Assembly: GCA_029243385.1 (NCBI GenBank)
Contig: JAQWSC010000015.1
Span: forward strand, 1-64,000
DNA: 64,000 nucleotides
Source of the DNA: Flavobacteriaceae bacterium
Lineage (GTDB): Bacteria > Bacteroidota > Bacteroidia > Flavobacteriales > Flavobacteriaceae
Direction of reading: 5' to 3'
Shown: one piece after another, positions 16,416 through 63,879 of the stretch
Numbering within the stretch: position 1 is the first letter of the stretch
Layout of the letters: each line of letters starts with the position of its first letter
Notes under the pieces: generated by a model
Databases searched by the model: none
What the model saw: the letters and a program-made list of their open reading frames with translations, nothing else
Told to the model about the DNA's origin: nothing
Program-made: the position numbers and the translations under genes

Positions 16416-16454
16416 GATTCATTTTTTTAATTTTATTTTTTTAAATTTGTACCA

Positions 16455-16532
16455 TCTCATAAGGGGTGCCCAACCAATCGGGCTGAGATCATACCCAATG
16501 AACCTGGGCGGATAATGCCGCCAAGGGATTTG
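16455..16532 (+). promoter_or_regulatory. TPP (THI-box) riboswitch
   Basis: The conserved TPP aptamer core is plain: GGGGTGCC, then GGGCTGAGAT, ATACCC, GAACCTG and the final GGATAATGCCG-CCAAGGGA. It lies about 65 bp upstream of the TonB receptor ATG. In Bacteroidota such elements usually shut down translation or transcription when thiamine pyrophosphate is plentiful. No clear terminator follows, so I infer translational control. Confidence 0.93.
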
Positions 16533-16598
16533 AAATTACGTTATTAATCTTTATACAGAATAATAACCCCTTTTATTTGTATTAATCTTTTTATACAA

Positions 16599-55986: not shown

Positions 55987-58104
55987 ATGGCAATTTTAGG
56001 AAAAATTAGAGAACGTTCTATATTTTTAATTCTGGTAATCGGGATGGCATTATTTGCCTTTGTGATATCAGGTGTTTTTGACGGAGGGAGTGGATCAGGA
56101 TTCGAAACAAGAGCTCCCATAGGAGAAGTTGATGGCGAAGAGCTTTCAATTGCTGAATTTCGCAATCAAGTCGATTTTTCAGAAAGAAACTTTAATATGA
56201 CTTCCAGTCAAGCGGTTGAAAATGTGTGGAATCAAATGCTCCGCTCTACTATTTTACAACAAGAGTTTGAAGCTCTTGGCTTGGGCGTTGGAAAATCAGC
56301 AATCGAATTGGTTTTAAGTGAAAATCCAAATTTCAATTCCGACACTCGATTTCAAAATGAAATCGGTCAGTTTGACGTTCAAAAATTCATCGATTTTTTA
56401 GCCGAACTAAAAGCTACGAACCCCATTGCTTTTGAACAATGGAGCAATCAGGAGGAGTCGCTCAAAAATTCATACCGCCAAACTGTTTATCAAAATTTAT
56501 TGAAAGCCGGTTTAAATGCAACTGAAAAAGATGGAGAATATGCATTTTATTCCGAAGGCAATACTGTGAATATTCAGTACGTTCAAATTCCTTATTCCAG
56601 TATTCCCGATAGTTTGGTATCTGTAACCAAAAAAGACATAAAAAATTATATAGAAGAGCATCCTTCAGATTTTGAAGTTGAAGCTTCTCGCGACATTCAA
56701 TACGTTTTATTTGAAGAATCTCCGTCATTGGAAGATGAAAATGCTATCAAAAGTAGCCTTGAAGAATTGTTGCAAGAAAAAGAAGCTTACAACGATGTTT
56801 CCAAATTGACAGAAACTCTTCCTAGTATCAAATCGACGAAAAACATTTCGGAGTTTATTAATGAGTATTCAGACATTAAATTTGACTCGATATATATTGC
56901 TAAAGGCGCCTTGCCAACTGCGGCAGCCAACACATTGTTTGCTTTGCCTGAAGGAGAAGTTTTTGGACCGTATTTAGACAACGGCTATTACAAGTTGTCT
57001 CGAATGTTGGATCGCAAAAAAGGAGGTTCTGTTCGAGCCAGCCATATTTTGGTTTCCTATCAAGGAGCTTCTAATGCAGCTTCTGATATTACAAGAAGCA
57101 AAGCAGCAGCCAAAGCGGAGGCACAACGCTTGTTACGAAAAGCTAGAAACAATCCGAGTACTTTTTCAGACTTGGCAAAAGAATTTTCGGACGGTCCTTC
57201 CAAAACCAAAGGAGGCGACTTGGGCTTTTTTCAAGAAGGAGCTATGGTTCCGAACTTTAATGATTTTGTGTTTTCAAACCGCAACGGTAAAATAGGGATG
57301 GTTGAAACGGACTTTGGATTCCACGTGATTCAAATTACAGGAAAAGAAGATGTCGTTCTGTTAGCCACCGTAGCTCGCAAGTTAGTTCCCTCTGAAGAAA
57401 CTAGCAACTTGGTGTTTAACCAAGCTACAAAATTTGAGATAGCCGCCCAAAAAGAGGTCGATTTTGTTCAGGTAGCTGAAGAAAACAAGTATTCGGTTCG
57501 ACCGGTTAAAAACCTTAAAGTTTTGGACAATAACCTTCCAGGGCTTGAAAATCAAAGACGTTTGGTGCAATGGGCCTTTTCTGAAGAAGCTCAAGTAGGA
57601 GATATCAAGCGTTTTAATGTCAACTCAGGAGGCTATGTGGTAGCTCAATTAACGAACGCAGTTGAAGAAGGTCTTTCTCCTGTAGAAGAGGCTTCGGCTC
57701 GTGTAACTCCTATTTTAAGAAACCAGCAAAAAGCAGCATACATTTTAGATAACTATTCAGACAATGATACGCTAGAAGCATTTGCTTCGGCAAACAATGT
57801 AACGGTTAACTCAGCAGCTGCGCTCAACACTCAGGCTGGAACGCTTTCAGGAGCAGGAAGAGAGCCTCTTATTGTCGGAACTGCCTTTTCAATGTCAGAG
57901 AATGAAGTTTCTGAACTGTTGAAAGGTCAAAACGGTGTTTACAAGATCAAGATTACTCAATCTTCCAAAGCAGCACCGATCGAAAATTACACGTTTTTCA
58001 TCAATCAAGAACAAGAAAAATATCGCAGCAATATTTTGTCGAAAGTTTTCACAGCGTTGAAAGATTCAAAAGAAGTAATTGACAACCGAGCGGAGTACTA
58101 CTAA
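55987..58104 (+). CDS. PpiD-like periplasmic peptidyl-prolyl isomerase/chaperone
   Basis: A 705-residue membrane-anchored foldase. An N-terminal TM helix (RSIFLILVIGMALFAFVISGVF, about 10-32) is followed by a SurA_N-like helical domain. A central parvulin domain (about 340-450) carries RASHILVSY, FSDLAKEFSDGPSKTKGGDLGFF and FGFHVIQITG. A long helical C-terminal domain follows. It helps newly exported proteins fold near SecYEG. It is the last gene of the coaX-lptC region and has a strong terminator 28 bp after the stop codon. Confidence 0.93.
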   Translation: MAILGKIRERSIFLILVIGMALFAFVISGVFDGGSGSGFETRAPIGEVDGEELSIAEFRNQVDFSERNFNMTSSQAVENVWNQMLRSTILQQEFEALGLGVGKSAIELVLSENPNFNSDTRFQNEIGQFDVQKFIDFLAELKATNPIAFEQWSNQEESLKNSYRQTVYQNLLKAGLNATEKDGEYAFYSEGNTVNIQYVQIPYSSIPDSLVSVTKKDIKNYIEEHPSDFEVEASRDIQYVLFEESPSLEDENAIKSSLEELLQEKEAYNDVSKLTETLPSIKSTKNISEFINEYSDIKFDSIYIAKGALPTAAANTLFALPEGEVFGPYLDNGYYKLSRMLDRKKGGSVRASHILVSYQGASNAASDITRSKAAAKAEAQRLLRKARNNPSTFSDLAKEFSDGPSKTKGGDLGFFQEGAMVPNFNDFVFSNRNGKIGMVETDFGFHVIQITGKEDVVLLATVARKLVPSEETSNLVFNQATKFEIAAQKEVDFVQVAEENKYSVRPVKNLKVLDNNLPGLENQRRLVQWAFSEEAQVGDIKRFNVNSGGYVVAQLTNAVEEGLSPVEEASARVTPILRNQQKAAYILDNYSDNDTLEAFASANNVTVNSAAALNTQAGTLSGAGREPLIVGTAFSMSENEVSELLKGQNGVYKIKITQSSKAAPIENYTFFINQEQEKYRSNILSKVFTALKDSKEVIDNRAEYY

Positions 58105-58324: not shown

Positions 58325-58474
58325 TTATTGAAATGATAAAAAATTCAGTAACTGCCTTTTTTGTCACAATAAAGTGCTGCGAAAATTTAGCAGTATGATT
58401 TTGAATCTTAACCTAAACCTACAAATGAAGAACTCTCTTGATTTTTTTAAAACAAAAATTAAGGGAGTTTTTTT
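58325..58474 (+). ncRNA. Candidate second antirepeat-bearing small RNA
   Basis: A plus-strand transcript ending at the 58431-58474 terminator must start between the ppiD terminator and about 58360. It contains TCACAATAA (58364-58372), the same 9-mer as the antirepeat core of the divergent tracrRNA. A 7-bp hairpin follows at once (58374-58380 with 58390-58396, 9-base loop), in the place of a tracrRNA nexus. Then come an unstructured linker and the terminator. Its bases 58364-58373 pair perfectly with the first downstream repeat. Promoter signals are weak (TATAAT at 58281, AAAATTTG at 58302), so the 5' end is uncertain. It could instead be a minus-strand repeat remnant. Confidence 0.4.
58431..58474 (+). 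terminator. Strong plus-strand terminator upstream of the Cas9-like gene
   Basis: A 16-bp stem (58431-58446 with 58454-58469, two G-U pairs) with a 7-base loop is followed by a T-tract at 58468-58474. There is no T-tract on the other strand. As ppiD already has its own terminator, this one implies a separate small plus-strand transcript. Confidence 0.85.
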
Positions 58475-58486
58475 ATGAAGGGGCTC

Positions 58487-58572
58487 AAAAAAAAAGTCCC
58501 ACCGAGGCAGGACAAAAGATTTTCATCTGCGGCATATAGCCTTATTGTGATAAGAATGATTTAACTAAAAAT
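58487..58572 (-). ncRNA. tracrRNA-like RNA of the Cas9-like locus
   Basis: Reading the minus strand from about 58572, every part of a type II tracrRNA appears in order. The antirepeat (about 58572-58542) ends ATTCTTATCACAATAAG. The nexus hairpin GGC-TATAT-GCC is at 58541-58531. A hairpin AGAT-GAAA-ATCT lies at 58528-58517. The terminator stem GTCCTGC/GTGGGAC with a CTCG loop (58513-58496) is followed by nine T residues (58495-58487). The CACAATAAGGC junction is what I expect for Bacteroidota II-C tracrRNAs. It is divergent from the Cas9-like gene and pairs with the repeats at 62112 and 62200. Size is about 86 bases. The call rests on architecture; expression is not shown. Confidence 0.8.
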
Positions 58573-58577
58573 CATGT

Positions 58578-58608
58578 CAAAGGTATTTAATTTTTTTTAA
58601 ACACCCAA
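58578..58608 (-). promoter_or_regulatory. Canonical Bacteroidota promoter of the tracrRNA-like gene
   Basis: On the minus strand, TTG (58608-58606), a 20-bp spacer and TACCTTTG (58585-58578) match the consensus exactly and place the transcription start near 58572. On the plus strand a weaker match, TTT (58586-58588), 20 bp, TTAGTTTG (58609-58616), could serve the Cas9-like gene. The two promoters would then be interleaved. Confidence 0.8.
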
Positions 58609-58628: not shown

Positions 58629-61600
58629 ATGAAAACATTAGGAATATCTTTAGGTGTTGATTCAATAGGATGGTCGGTAATAGACTCCAATCATAAAATT
58701 GAGGGAATGGGTGTGCGTGTTTTTTCTCCTGGTGCTCAGAACCTAGGAATGGGCGAGCGCGAAATTTCAAATAAGGCTTCAAAACGTGAGGCGCGTTTGG
58801 TTAGAAAGGGACACTTTAGAACCCGTCTTAGAAAGCAAAAATTACTACACTTTTTAATAGACCACAATATGTGTCCCTTATCACATAGCGACGTGGTGGT
58901 TTGGGAAAATCAAAAAATAGCTCCTATTGATAAAAGCAAAGAGTGGTTTGCAATGAACCCTTACAAGCTTCGAAGTAAAGCTGTTAGTGAAAAAATATCC
59001 TTACACGAATTTGGAAGAGTTTTGTATCACATGGCTCAGCGGAGAGGGTTCTCATCGATTCATTCGCAATACAATCCCATATTGAGTACATTGAAATTGG
59101 GCAACCCCGAAAAAAAAACGGTTGGAATTAAAGAAACCAAAAGAAAAATAAAGAATACTACATTGGGGGAATACTTGCATTCCATTCAACCCGAAGAGAA
59201 TACAACTTATCAGAACAAACCTGCTAGAATTCGAAATCGATATACAGAAAGATCTATGTATATTCATGAATTCAACGTGTTGTTTGACTCTCAAAAACAG
59301 TATCACCCAGGGTTGACCAATGCGATAAAAAACAAATTGGGCGTTGGGTTGGAAGAAGAAAATACAGCCAAAGGACTTTTGTTTTTTCAGCGTCCTTTGA
59401 AGTCCAAAAAATATTTGGTTGGAAATTGCCCTTTTGAACGCAACAAGACAAAAGCTCCTTCCAGTTGTCCAGAATTTGAAATGATGAAAATTTACAAATG
59501 GGTTAATTCAATTCGGTACAATAATTTACCACTGTCTGAAGAACAAAAAGAACAAGCGATTCAAGTGGCACTTAAGTTTTCGCGATTTTCGTTTTTGAAA
59601 GTGAGAAAAGCACTCAACAAAACAAGTTCCTCGGATTCATTTAATTATCATGATAACGATATTCAAATCATATCCCATACTCTTGTAACACTTTGTAAGC
59701 CAAAGTTTTTTGGAAAGGATTGGTTTGAATTTACCGAAAAAGAGCAAGAAGATATTTGGCATGTGCTGTATTTTTTTAACGATAAAAAGAAATTGATCCA
59801 ATATGCAGTATCTCATTGGGGATTTTCGCTGAGCAGTGCAAAGGAACTTTCAAAAATTTCTTTGAAAACAGATTATGCAGACTTGAGCCGAAAAGCCATT
59901 CGAAATATTATGTTTTTTCTCAAACGATCAATAAGTTATGAATTGGCGGTCATTTTAGGAGGAATTAAATCATCGCTCGGAAAAAACTGGACGCGCTTGG
60001 GTGAGGGTGATATTGATGCCCTTGTTTATTCAGTAACATCTCTATATGAAGAAAATGAATTGTATGGTTTTATTCCAGCTCTTCAAGCTCATTTGAAAGA
60101 CGAATTCCAATTTTCAGAAAAACAGATACGAGGGCTTTACGGAATTGCCTCACAAATTATAAATTACGAATCTTCAAAGTTTTTACCAACCAATGCTAAA
60201 GAAGATAAGGAAATCATTGCTCTTAAAAAACCGTTGCTAATAACAACAATTTTTCAATTGAGAAAAGTAGTCAATCAAATTATTAAAAAATACGGCTCCG
60301 TGGATCAAATAAAAGTAACCCTTTTACCCGAATTAAAAGCCAGCCGCCCTCAACGAAGAATCATTTACTCTGAACGAAAAAGACGCAAAGAAAATTCACT
60401 GAATATCCAACAAAAAGTAATTGATCTTGGTAAAAACCCTACTTTTTTAAACATAACCAAACTTGATTTGTGGGAAGAATCCAAAGGGTTTTGCCCTTAT
60501 ACAGGAACTCCCATTGCAATAGAGGATCTTTTTACAAACAAAGTCTCGGTAGTTTACATTCGCCCTTGGGATCGTTTTATTAATGATTCTAATTTGAACC
60601 GAACCCTTTGCAAAACGTATTTTAAAAAACATATTGAAGGGCAAACTCCTTACGAATTTTTTTCTTCCGACATAAAATACAATTGGGACGATATTAAAAA
60701 AAGAACCGCTAAGATTTTTTCTGACTCTAAAACACATCCCAATAGCTATGAGAAATTCAAACACTTTGTTCTTGTTGGAAAACAAGATGCAAACTATTTG
60801 ACAGAAATCAACGATCAGCACCATTTGAGTTTGGAGGTACAATGCTATTTGAATAAAATTTGCTCCAATGTAATAATGAGTTCAGGCTTTGTAAACAATC
60901 GACTTAGAAAAAAATGGAATCTTGATTTACCAGATGACAAGCAACGAAAAACGCTTTTAGATGACCATAGACTCCATGCTATGCACGCATTAACAACCGC
61001 CTGTTGTGAAATTAAATTTTTAAATGCTTTGGCTCATCACAATCGTTTTGAAATTACAAATAACCCTTCGTTATTTCCAATGCCATGGGCTGGTTTTGAT
61101 AAAGATGCTAAGGAGGCCTTGGATAAAATTATTGTGAGCCACCAATTCAAAGATACCATACTCACAAGTACGCACTATAAAACTCGAAAGAAAGGAGTTT
61201 TGTATAGAAACAAAGGGGTAGCGGCTCGAGGGAGCTTACACAGAGAAACCTATTACGGGAAACGAACAACCCAAAGTGGCGAAGCCTACCATCTTAGAAA
61301 ACCACTGGGAACCATTACCACTCTTAAACAAATCAACCGAATAGTAGACCCTGTGATTAAAAAATTAATTTTTAATCGCATTCAATCTTTGGGTGGTTTT
61401 GATAAAGGAAAAGTTCCTAAAAAAGCCTTTTTCAGCAAAACCAAGACCGGGAAAACAATCCCCAAAATATTTTTACCCAACCGAAATGGCGACCCAGTTC
61501 CTGTGTTGAAAGTTCGTGTTAGAAATCAAGTAGGTAATGCGGTTCAGATAAAGTCACAAGGAAATAAATATGTAAATCCTAGAAACAATCATCACGTTCT

Positions 61601-62060
61601 TATTTACGAAGACTTAATGGGAAATTTACAACAAGAGATCGTTACATTTTGGGAAGTTGTTGAACGAAAGCGAAACGGGAAACCTGTGATTCAGATGCCT
61701 GACGATGGAAAAAAAATTATAACAACTCTTCAAATCAATGATTGCTTTATCTTAGGAATGGATGACAAGGCAATCCACTGGAATCGTTTGGATTACAAAA
61801 CAATTAAAGATCACGTTTATCGTGTTCAGCGATTGTCTTCGTGTTTCTATGAATTTAGAAGAGTATTTGATGCAAATATTACCAAATCAATCTATCCTAA
61901 CTATGTGAGAATTCTAAATTTTGGGAATCACAAAACGGGATGGATGACGTACAATCCTATAAAAATAAAAGTTAATGCCATTGGAGAAATTTCAAAACAT
62001 GAAATCTCCTCAAACAGTTCTTTACATATTGACTCATCCAATGTTGTTTTAAACGTATAA
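58629..62060 (+). CDS. Orphan nuclease-dead Cas9 homologue (type II-C-like)
   Basis: A 1143-residue Cas9 homologue, counted from the ATG at 58629 (a TTG at 58614 would add five residues). RuvC-I reads LGISLGVDSIGWSVI: Ser7 replaces the catalytic Asp. The Arg-rich bridge helix (about 49-77) and the REC segment NPYKLRSKAVSEKISLHEFG (from 110) are well kept. RuvC-II reads IKVTLLPELK (Thr564 for Glu). The HNH segment keeps CPYTGTPI (from 622) but reads VSVVYIRP (Val642-Tyr643 for Asp/Glu-His), with Phe665 at the later Asn. RuvC-III reads DHRLHAMHA (His786 for Asp; His783 kept). All catalytic metal ligands but one His are lost, yet the frame is intact, so DNA binding without cleavage is likely. 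Relatives of this type are, from memory, about 1400 residues. No cas1 or cas2 is nearby. Probable role: RNA-guided repression or silencing. Confidence 0.95.
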   Translation: MKTLGISLGVDSIGWSVIDSNHKIEGMGVRVFSPGAQNLGMGEREISNKASKREARLVRKGHFRTRLRKQKLLHFLIDHNMCPLSHSDVVVWENQKIAPIDKSKEWFAMNPYKLRSKAVSEKISLHEFGRVLYHMAQRRGFSSIHSQYNPILSTLKLGNPEKKTVGIKETKRKIKNTTLGEYLHSIQPEENTTYQNKPARIRNRYTERSMYIHEFNVLFDSQKQYHPGLTNAIKNKLGVGLEEENTAKGLLFFQRPLKSKKYLVGNCPFERNKTKAPSSCPEFEMMKIYKWVNSIRYNNLPLSEEQKEQAIQVALKFSRFSFLKVRKALNKTSSSDSFNYHDNDIQIISHTLVTLCKPKFFGKDWFEFTEKEQEDIWHVLYFFNDKKKLIQYAVSHWGFSLSSAKELSKISLKTDYADLSRKAIRNIMFFLKRSISYELAVILGGIKSSLGKNWTRLGEGDIDALVYSVTSLYEENELYGFIPALQAHLKDEFQFSEKQIRGLYGIASQIINYESSKFLPTNAKEDKEIIALKKPLLITTIFQLRKVVNQIIKKYGSVDQIKVTLLPELKASRPQRRIIYSERKRRKENSLNIQQKVIDLGKNPTFLNITKLDLWEESKGFCPYTGTPIAIEDLFTNKVSVVYIRPWDRFINDSNLNRTLCKTYFKKHIEGQTPYEFFSSDIKYNWDDIKKRTAKIFSDSKTHPNSYEKFKHFVLVGKQDANYLTEINDQHHLSLEVQCYLNKICSNVIMSSGFVNNRLRKKWNLDLPDDKQRKTLLDDHRLHAMHALTTACCEIKFLNALAHHNRFEITNNPSLFPMPWAGFDKDAKEALDKIIVSHQFKDTILTSTHYKTRKKGVLYRNKGVAARGSLHRETYYGKRTTQSGEAYHLRKPLGTITTLKQINRIVDPVIKKLIFNRIQSLGGFDKGKVPKKAFFSKTKTGKTIPKIFLPNRNGDPVPVLKVRVRNQVGNAVQIKSQGNKYVNPRNNHHVLIYEDLMGNLQQEIVTFWEVVERKRNGKPVIQMPDDGKKIITTLQINDCFILGMDDKAIHWNRLDYKTIKDHVYRVQRLSSCFYEFRRVFDANITKSIYPNYVRILNFGNHKTGWMTYNPIKIKVNAIGEISKHEISSNSSLHIDSSNVVLNV

Positions 62061-62239: not shown

Positions 62240-62740
62240 TCAAAAAAGAAGCTCGGATTTATAGTCCCAGGCTTTGAGTACAAAAAGTACAAGAAAGACA
62301 ACAGCAGTTCCGAGTTTTAAAAAAGTACCTGTCAAAAACCCAATAAATGAGCCCAGTGCTGCTCGAAAAGCCTTTTTAGAATCTTTATTTTTACTCATTT
62401 CTCCTGCAAAAGCACCTATAAAAGGGCCGATAATGATTCCAAAAGGAGGGAAAAACAATACTCCTAAAATAAGTCCAATAGTTGTTCCAATCATTCCCGA
62501 CTTTGTGCCTCCAAATTTTTTGGTTCCTAACAGAGGAATCACATAATCTAGCAGAAAAATCGCGATAGCCACAGCCAAGGTAATCCCTAAGAAACGCCAG
62601 TTGTCAGGAACAGCCTTTGTTGCGTGGAGCGCCCACAAGCCAAACCAACCAGTTAGGGGGCCTGGAAGCACAGGAAGAAAACTTCCGACTACTCCCAACA
62701 TCACTAACAAAATGCCCACAAAAAACAATAGTGTATCCAT
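62240..62740 (-). CDS. DUF456 family membrane protein
   Basis: A 166-residue protein with five or six hydrophobic, Gly-rich helices. It has GVVGSFLPVLPGPLTGWFGLWAL (about 14-36), GTKKFGGTKSGMIGTTIGLILGVLFFPPFGIIIGPFIGAFAGE and a final GTFLKLGTAVVFLVLFVL. This matches DUF456, of unknown function, whose Gly-zipper-like repeats resemble those of small pore or stress proteins. I chose the ATG at 62740 (MDTLLFFVGILL) as the family start. It is convergent with the Cas9-like locus and looks unrelated to it. Confidence 0.87.
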   Translation of the reverse strand: MDTLLFFVGILLVMLGVVGSFLPVLPGPLTGWFGLWALHATKAVPDNWRFLGITLAVAIAIFLLDYVIPLLGTKKFGGTKSGMIGTTIGLILGVLFFPPFGIIIGPFIGAFAGEMSKNKDSKKAFRAALGSFIGFLTGTFLKLGTAVVFLVLFVLKAWDYKSELLF

Positions 62741-62821
62741 TGAATGCATATTTATGCCATAAAAATACGAGATAGAATTGAAAATCATCAAACAAACCTC
62801 AAATTTTCGTAATTTTCACAA

Positions 62822-63286
62822 ATGAATAAGTGGCTTCTATTACTAAGCGTTACACTCGTTTTTTTTTCGTGTAAACAATCATCACCTGAAAAACATTCGA
62901 TTTCTTACGAATGGACTTTTTCAGACGAAAGCCCTTCTTTTTCTCACTGCGATTCACTTCAAACTTATAAAGAGCAATATCAGTGCTTTCAAAAAGAATT
63001 GAGTCGTTTGTTATCCAATCAGATCAACCAATACCGACTGCAGCCCAACAACCCACTCAATGACACTCTTGTACTTACTTTATTGATAGATCAAAAAGGC
63101 AAGATATCCATTAAAAATAGAAGCACTAACACGAATATCGATACCGAATTTCCTTTTATAGACAGTCTTTTACAACTGTCGGTATCCAAGATGCCCAATG
63201 TGTTGCCAGCAACCAAGACTAATGTTGGACTTCCTGTAAAATCCACGATTGACTTGCCTCTTATTTTTAAAACGACACCTCAATAA
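62822..63286 (+). CDS. Hypothetical lipoprotein with a TonB-C-like domain
   Basis: A 154-residue lipoprotein (signal MNKWLLLLSVTLVFFSC, Cys17). After a polar stretch it has TLVLTLLIDQKGKISIKNRST and a final LPVKSTIDLPLIF, a strand pattern like the small C-terminal domain of TonB-type energy transducers. There is no membrane anchor or Pro-rich stalk, so it is not a functional TonB. The role is unknown. It is divergent from DUF456 and 20 bp upstream of ruvC. Confidence 0.65.
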   Translation: MNKWLLLLSVTLVFFSCKQSSPEKHSISYEWTFSDESPSFSHCDSLQTYKEQYQCFQKELSRLLSNQINQYRLQPNNPLNDTLVLTLLIDQKGKISIKNRSTNTNIDTEFPFIDSLLQLSVSKMPNVLPATKTNVGLPVKSTIDLPLIFKTTPQ

Positions 63287-63306: not shown

Positions 63307-63879
63307 ATGAGTCAAAATCAATCCCCTTCTTCAGAACGTATTATTTTAGGGATCGATCCTGGGACAACCATCATGGGTTTTGGATTGATTAAGGTGGTTG
63401 GAAAAAAAATGGATTTTCTTCAACTCAACGAGTTAAAATTGAATAAATTAGATGATCATTACGTTCGTCTTAAGCTTATTTTTGAACGCACCATTGAGCT
63501 GATTGACTCATTTCACCCGGATGAAATTGCGATTGAAGCTCCTTTTTTTGGTAAAAACGTGCAATCCATGCTCAAATTGGGGCGCGCTCAAGGAGTTGCC
63601 ATGGCGGCTGGACTATCAAGAGGCATTCCCATCACGGAGTATTCTCCTAAAAAAATAAAAATGGCCATCACGGGCAGTGGAAATGCAAGCAAAGAACAGG
63701 TTGCCAAAATGCTTCAAAGCGTTTTGGGGCTAAAAACACTTCCTAAAAATTTAGATTCAACCGACGGTTTGGCAGCGGCAGTATGCCATTTTTATAACGC
63801 TGGAAATCAACAATCTAACAAAAAATTTTCTGGCTGGGCTTCTTTTGTAAAACAAGAGGCACACCGCGTTAAAAAATAA
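63307..63879 (+). CDS. ruvC: Holliday junction endonuclease RuvC
   Basis: RuvC resolves Holliday junctions as a dimer. The 190-residue protein has RIILGIDPGTTIMGFGLI with the first catalytic Asp, EIAIEAPFFGKNVQSMLKLGRAQGV with the catalytic Glu and LDSTDGLAAAVCHFY with the final acidic site. All catalytic residues are present, in contrast with the RuvC domain of the Cas9 homologue 1.2 kb upstream. hemW follows after 4 bp. Confidence 0.96.
   Translation: MSQNQSPSSERIILGIDPGTTIMGFGLIKVVGKKMDFLQLNELKLNKLDDHYVRLKLIFERTIELIDSFHPDEIAIEAPFFGKNVQSMLKLGRAQGVAMAAGLSRGIPITEYSPKKIKMAITGSGNASKEQVAKMLQSVLGLKTLPKNLDSTDGLAAAVCHFYNAGNQQSNKKFSGWASFVKQEAHRVKK

What the first reader, a model, noticed from the sequence alone, without database searches (positions are those of the whole stretch)
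58629..62060. Intact orphan Cas9 homologue with both nuclease sites erased
Seen: a single 1143-codon frame without stops or frameshifts aligns by motif with type II-C Cas9. The catalytic residues are replaced at every site I can place: RuvC Asp to Ser7, Glu to Thr564, Asp to His786; HNH Asp/Glu-His to Val642-Tyr643, and the late Asn to Phe665. RuvC His783 survives. The bridge helix, REC motifs, the CPYTG of the HNH domain and a C-terminal PAM-interacting-sized region are kept. Known: engineered dCas9 binds DNA without cutting, and natural nuclease-dead TnpB relatives act as RNA-guided repressors. Inference: a naturally domesticated dead Cas9, kept under selection for binding. Loss at both nuclease sites while the frame stays open argues against simple decay.
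Basis: partly seen in the sequence, partly recalled or inferred. Interest (0 to 1): 0.97.

Follow-up and report, generated by a model that had tools for sequence, protein, structure and literature searches.

The report
Natural nuclease-dead Cas9 under selection
A Flavobacteriaceae genome carries an intact Cas9 gene whose two DNA-cutting sites are both gone, and relatives in three other genera share the same dead gene at the same chromosomal place, kept intact by natural selection beside its helper RNA, so nature appears to have made its own 'dCas9', probably as an RNA-guided binding protein whose target is still unknown.

Summary
The frame is real: 1143 codons, 58629-62060, full-length match to the Cas9 family (TIGR01865, E 4e-124). 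Aligned with 11 catalytic Cas9s from the same family, all catalytic positions are replaced (S7, T564, V642, Y643, K666, H786); only His783 and the non-catalytic Asn657 remain. It is not a one-off. The same dead gene lies at the same locus (upstream of DUF456-lipoprotein-ruvC-hemN) in four Flavobacteriaceae genera; seven copies are intact full-length frames. In a tree without catalytic columns the dead proteins form one clade (SH-aLRT 91). dN/dS within the clade is 0.03-0.12 where measurable, so selection acted after inactivation. None of 12 genomes holding the gene or a remnant has Cas1 or the ancestral CRISPR repeat; three catalytic controls have both. A tracrRNA body with covarying hairpins is kept antisense beside the gene. 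The C-terminal PAM-reading region is the best conserved part and RuvC-III the worst. A second conserved noncoding block upstream may encode the guide, but pairing and target are not shown. Best reading: a domesticated, naturally dead Cas9 acting as an RNA-guided binder or regulator. Copies are also being lost: a sister species keeps only the last 264 codons.

The parts
58629..62060 (+). nuclease-dead cas9 (1143 aa); replaced catalytic codons: S7 58647-58649, T564 60318-60320, V642-Y643 60552-60557, K666 60624-60626, H786 60984-60986
   Evidence: ORF, TIGR01865 E 4.3e-124, alignments
58487..58571 (-). tracrRNA-like RNA: CTTATCACAATAAGGC nexus, stem 2 and intrinsic terminator GTCCTGCCTCGGTGGGACTTTTTTTTT; the anti-repeat is replaced by a self-hairpin ATGATTT/AAATCAT. 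The 5' end is estimated from the promoter motif
   Evidence: core near-identical to the tracrRNA of catalytic relatives; covarying stems in 15 dead-locus copies
58578..58585 (-). Bacteroidota-type -7 box TACCTTTG (TAnnTTTG) for the tracrRNA-like RNA
   Evidence: sequence; motif from general knowledge
58355..58478 (+). second conserved noncoding element: CCTTTTTTG (58355-58363), 47-nt block identical in the sister species (58383-58429), intrinsic-terminator-like hairpin (58431-58478); candidate crRNA/scaRNA-like guide RNA, unproven
   Evidence: conservation against G001; fold z -5.1 for 58384-58580; analogous conserved block in genus g190
55987..58104 (+). ppiD/SurA-like chaperone, conserved upstream neighbour in the window genus and g190
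   Evidence: Pfam, synteny
62240..62791 (-). DUF456 protein, conserved downstream neighbour
   Evidence: Pfam PF04306, synteny
62822..63286 (+). small lipoprotein-like gene, conserved downstream neighbour
   Evidence: synteny; no Pfam match
63307..63879 (+). ruvC, conserved downstream neighbour
   Evidence: Pfam PF02075, synteny

Best explanation
A type II-C Cas9 lost its CRISPR array, adaptation genes and both nuclease sites in an ancestor of several Flavobacteriaceae genera. It was then kept as an ordinary chromosomal gene: a natural dCas9. Shown: erased catalytic sites, evidence for a single origin at one locus, purifying selection after inactivation, loss of Cas1 and repeats, retention of a structured tracrRNA body. 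Inferred: the protein binds this RNA, is given a fixed guide by a small RNA (in this genus possibly the conserved element at 58355-58478), and sits without cutting on a chromosomal target or transcript, acting as a regulator. Neither guide nor target has been identified.
For: Residue table over dead and catalytic homologues: HNH His is Tyr in every dead protein with a readable residue there except G225 (Met) and G460a (stop codon), pointing to one ancestral HNH loss. Dead proteins form one clade, SH-aLRT 91, catalytic columns removed. Same downstream synteny in four genera. dN/dS 0.07/0.115 (window against G001 C-terminus, dS 1.5/1.0), 0.10/0.105 (G460 against G455, dS 0.54/0.61), 0.08-0.105 (G205 against G447); neighbours of the window pair: ppiD 0.053, ruvC 0.037. 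No Cas1 or repeat in 12 genomes, present in 3 controls. tracrRNA body: 99.5% of cells paired, 20 two-sided compensatory cells against 0-1 when slid. Between genera the C-terminal PAM-reading region is most conserved (51%) and RuvC-III least (23%); in catalytic relatives RuvC-III 74%, C-terminus 70%. Cas9 and its neighbouring RNA or HTH gene are lost together in G445, G452, G459 and G470.
Against: No guide:target pair was found: nothing convincing outside the AT-rich terminator in G000/G001, no convincing target in genus g190. The anti-repeat that binds a crRNA is deleted or replaced in dead loci, and predicted pairing of the upstream RNA with the tracrRNA is weak and inconsistent. Many copies are broken or reduced to a C-terminal stub, so the function is dispensable in some lineages. 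No expression data.
Confidence: 0.62

Rival explanations
1. The dead Cas9 is kept as an RNA-binding protein that uses only the tracrRNA-like RNA (autoregulation, RNA stabilisation or a scaffold) and has no DNA-targeting guide.
For: Anti-repeat lost or replaced in dead loci; no target found; the tracrRNA body is the one RNA element present at all dead loci with a readable upstream region.
Against: The PAM-reading C-terminus is the most conserved region, which an RNA-only role would not obviously need; a second conserved noncoding block exists in two genera.
Confidence: 0.2
2. A decaying pseudogene: an orphan Cas9 losing function, caught while some frames are still open.
For: Stops or frameshifts in G463, G460, G455, G450, G447 and G444; stubs in G001, G445, G452, G459 and G470; many genomes in these genera have no copy.
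Against: dN/dS 0.03-0.12 after the shared inactivation; seven intact frames in deeply diverged lineages, while neutral drift of 0.05 per site would give about 10 stops; compensatory changes in the tracrRNA stems.
Confidence: 0.1
3. A fixed-guide, CRISPRi-like defence against one mobile element by binding without cutting.
For: Cas9 ancestry; presence/absence pattern inside genera.
Against: No array, no Cas1; fixed chromosomal locus among housekeeping genes; no copy found by pattern scans of viral contigs and only distant ordinary Cas9s on plasmids.
Confidence: 0.06
4. Residual or altered nuclease activity with non-canonical metal ligands.
For: RuvC-II Glu is kept in the G021 lineage, RuvC-I Asp in G449, RuvC-III Asp in G460b.
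Against: Every dead protein resolved at the sites lacks at least two of three RuvC acids as well as the HNH Glu-His pair; replacements differ by lineage, as expected of released sites.
Confidence: 0.02

Closest known systems
Type II-C Cas9 (catalytic Flavobacteriaceae relatives)
   Same: Full-length homology (40-45% identity to the window protein), tracrRNA body and its antisense position next to cas9
   Different: Both nuclease sites erased, no array, no Cas1, anti-repeat lost or replaced, fixed chromosomal locus
TldR (TnpB-like nuclease-dead repressors; Wiegand et al. 2024, described in PMC13418256)
   Same: RNA-guided nuclease family that lost its active site and is kept by selection, apparently as an RNA-guided binder
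   Different: Derived from Cas9 rather than TnpB; two nuclease domains lost; tracrRNA-type RNA; chromosomal; guide and target not identified here
scaRNA-Cas9 regulation in Francisella novicida (PMC8730458) and the type II-C scaRNA of Neisseria meningitidis (PMC13431127)
   Same: Cas9 plus tracrRNA plus a locus-encoded small RNA used for gene regulation
   Different: Those Cas9 proteins remain nucleases in CRISPR loci; here the nuclease is gone, and a scaRNA-like RNA is only a candidate
Engineered dCas9 / CRISPRi
   Same: Cas9 without nuclease activity
   Different: Natural, evolutionarily old, several different replacements, more sites lost than the usual two engineered substitutions

Membership tests
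Cas9 protein family (TIGR01865) | Full-length homology | tested here: met
   E 4.3e-124, residues 3-1085
Cas9 nuclease (type II effector) | RuvC acidic triad | tested here: not met
   S7, T564, H786
Cas9 nuclease (type II effector) | HNH catalytic Asp/Glu-His and late Asn | tested here: not met
   V642, Y643, K666
Type II CRISPR-Cas system | CRISPR array with the ancestral repeat | tested here: not met
   none with up to 3 mismatches in 12 genomes; present in 3 controls. A repeat of different sequence elsewhere in the genome was not excluded
Type II CRISPR-Cas system | Cas1 adaptation gene | tested here: not met
Type II CRISPR-Cas system | tracrRNA body (nexus, terminator) | tested here: met
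Type II CRISPR-Cas system | anti-repeat complementary to a crRNA | tested here: inconclusive
   upper part deleted in most dead loci and a self-hairpin in the window; duplex with the upstream RNA weak
Domesticated nuclease-dead RNA-guided regulator (TldR-like in function) | purifying selection after loss of nuclease | tested here: met
Domesticated nuclease-dead RNA-guided regulator (TldR-like in function) | guide matching a chromosomal target | tested here: inconclusive
Domesticated nuclease-dead RNA-guided regulator (TldR-like in function) | RNA-guided DNA binding or repression | not testable with these tools
   needs RIP-seq, ChIP-seq and reporter assays
Pseudogene | relaxed selection (dN/dS near 1), stops | tested here: not met
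   window frame intact; dN/dS far below 1. Other lineages do hold broken copies

The most novel reading that the evidence does not exclude
The first known family of naturally nuclease-dead Cas9, ancestral to at least four Flavobacteriaceae genera, working as an RNA-guided chromosomal regulator with a reduced tracrRNA and a fixed guide encoded beside it: a natural CRISPRi made from Cas9.
Probability: 0.5. Interest if true: 0.95.

Novelty: new variant of a known kind. Interest (0 to 1): 0.9.

Why it matters
Dead TnpB relatives (TldR) have been described as natural RNA-guided regulators, but in the papers searched here no natural dead Cas9 family was found (most subscription papers and preprints are not held). 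This clade would show that evolution made dCas9 by itself, give a naturally tuned binder with a shortened tracrRNA, and make the question of what a Cas9 is for without cutting directly testable. The series of intact, broken and stub copies in sister species also allows the path of domestication and loss to be followed.

Tried and rejected
Guide:target search: BLAST of the upstream RNA against G000/G001 gave mainly AT-rich terminator matches. The 12-nt TTTTTTGCTTTG of genus g190 occurs in tpiA of four genomes, but inside a conserved coding motif, so it is taken as coincidence. A 2-3-mismatch match of the 19-nt block at the fusA start in G445 and G205 is not above chance, and G445 has lost the RNA. 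crRNA:tracrRNA duplex prediction: weak and inconsistent. The first duplex scan of the window was invalid because its region overlapped the tracr tail. Rfam: no named RNA family at the locus. Structure prediction with the three admissible sequences failed (pLDDT 37), so no fold search was run. Pattern scans: no relative in genome contigs from the window protein alone, and from the two-member alignment only G021's own record and a distant Dysgonomonas Cas9; no close relative in viral contigs. Order-wide search of 396 genomes: all further good matches checked are catalytic Cas9s.

Full report
THE GENE. Positions 58629-62060 (+) hold one open frame of 1143 codons. It matches the NCBIfam Cas9 model TIGR01865 over almost its whole length (E 4.3e-124), and its best solved relatives are Cas9s. 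The window lies in a 1.69-Mb, 99% complete genome in which this is the only Cas9 found with the window protein as query.

ACTIVE SITES. In an alignment with 11 same-family Cas9s that keep every catalytic residue, the window protein has Ser at RuvC-I Asp (7), Thr at RuvC-II Glu (564), Val-Tyr at the HNH Glu-His (642-643), Lys at the late HNH Asn (666) and His at RuvC-III Asp (786). RuvC-III His783 and Asn657 remain. Motifs around each site align without gaps, so shifted ligands are unlikely; the structure model was too poor to test this.

A CLADE, NOT A CASE. Searches of relatives found orthologues with the same losses. Full-length intact frames: G021 (public MAG CPBay_Spr15L08_85), G225, G205, G381, G449, G451 and the window. 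Copies with one or more stops or a frameshift: G463, G460, G455, G450, G447, G444. C-terminal stubs: G001, G445, G452, G459, G470. HNH His is Tyr in every dead protein with a readable residue there except G225 (Met) and G460a (stop codon), and the HNH Glu is Val, Ile or Leu throughout; the RuvC replacements differ between lineages. This fits one ancestral HNH loss followed by release of RuvC. In a tree without the catalytic columns the dead proteins form one clade (SH-aLRT 91; G225 and the outgroup are long branches, and this was a quick search without bootstrap). The gene sits at one orthologous place, upstream of DUF456, a small lipoprotein-like gene, ruvC and hemN, in four genera. On the other side lie ppiD and corC (window genus and g190), or an HTH gene followed by an nramp gene, with a sigma-factor gene between them in g21 (g21 and G225). 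An order-wide sample of 396 genomes had no further dead member among the matches checked, so the clade looks narrow.

ORPHAN. None of 12 genomes holding the gene or its remnant has Cas1 or the ancestral 24-nt repeat core within 3 mismatches; three catalytic controls have both.

SELECTION. Pairwise codon-model dN/dS within the dead clade is about 0.03-0.12 where dS is estimable: window against G001 C-terminus 0.07 and 0.115 (dS 1.5 and 1.0), G460 against G455 0.10 and 0.105 (dS 0.54 and 0.61), G205 against G447 0.105 and 0.08. Omega = 1 is rejected in every pair. Several more distant pairs have saturated dS, so their very low omega values are not to be taken as numbers. Neighbour genes in the window pair: ppiD 0.053, ruvC 0.037, DUF456 0.033, lipoprotein 0.19. 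Neutral drift of the window gene by 0.05 substitutions per site gives about 10 stops and 0.5 gives about 57. Because the HNH inactivation is shared, this selection acted on a protein already impaired. It acted unevenly: between genera the C-terminal region is 51% identical and RuvC-III 23%, while catalytic relatives show 70% and 74% (domain borders are approximate). I read this as keeping PAM/DNA and RNA contacts while dropping catalysis (inference). For the window lineage itself, the only close comparison covers the last ~264 codons.

THE RNAs. In catalytic relatives the tracrRNA is antisense to and just upstream of cas9, with anti-repeat TCTAATCTTTAAT, nexus and terminator. In dead loci the body is kept almost letter for letter (CTTATCACAATAAGGC...GGTGGGAC-T-run), with compensatory changes in stems 2 and 3 (15 sequences, 99.5% of cells paired, 20 two-sided changes against 0-1 when slid). 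The anti-repeat upper part is missing in most dead loci, where the promoter motif TAnnTTTG moves next to the body, and is a self-hairpin in the window. Upstream on the plus strand is a second conserved element: 47 nt identical between the window and G001 where the surrounding intergenic DNA is far less conserved, and in genus g190 an invariant GCTTTGATTGTTATGCTAC plus GTAGC in seven species, in intergenic DNA that is otherwise hardly alignable. It is absent from G445 and G452, which lost cas9. It is the natural candidate for a scaRNA- or crRNA-like guide, but pairing with the tracrRNA was weak and no target emerged. Genus g21 and G225 have instead a LuxR-like HTH gene (weak GerE match in G021), which is gone where cas9 is gone in G459 and G470.

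INTERPRETATION. Shown: natural loss of both nuclease sites, evidence for one origin, selection after it, loss of the CRISPR context, retention of a structured tracrRNA body. Inferred: Cas9:RNA complex formation and RNA-guided binding used for regulation. Unknown: guide and target. The closest mechanism is TldR (Wiegand et al. 2024, as described in PMC13418256) and, for the RNA arrangement, scaRNA-Cas9 regulation (PMC8730458; PMC13431127). No paper on a natural dead Cas9 family was found in the library, which lacks most subscription journals and preprints, so priority cannot be asserted.

CAUTIONS. Most genomes here are draft assemblies or MAGs, so single stops and frameshifts may be sequencing errors. 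The sister species G001 really lacks residues 1-878: one contig runs from ppiD through the RNA block into the C-terminal remnant. The gene is dispensable in many relatives.

Noticed in passing
L026/L007 (G001), L078 (G445), L079 (G452), L090 (G459), L091 (G470): Five genomes keep only the C-terminal ~110-264 codons of the dead cas9 at the locus; most of these stubs are open and several still show dN/dS of 0.03-0.12 (G470 has an in-frame stop). Recent deletions, or a separately useful C-terminal piece.
   Followed up: partly
L037:12815-13207, L060:11462-11791: A LuxR-like HTH gene sits between the tracrRNA terminator and the upstream neighbour in genus g21 and G225, and is missing where cas9 is reduced to a stub: a possible partner regulator.
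   Followed up: partly
L085 (G460 contig C45): A second, different dead-type Cas9 (one stop, RuvC-III Asp kept) beside ppiD and a tracrRNA in the G460 assembly; possibly a contaminating contig of another species.
   Followed up: partly
L036:10981-14367 (G037): A catalytic-type cas9 with array and cas1 is interrupted by a single in-frame TGA; sequencing error or fresh loss.
   Followed up: no
L164, L176 (fusA start region): 17 of 19 and 16 of 19 matches to the g190 conserved RNA block at the fusA start codon in G445 and G205; not above chance.
   Followed up: partly
window 16452-16545: TPP riboswitch just above the Rfam cut-off.
   Followed up: no
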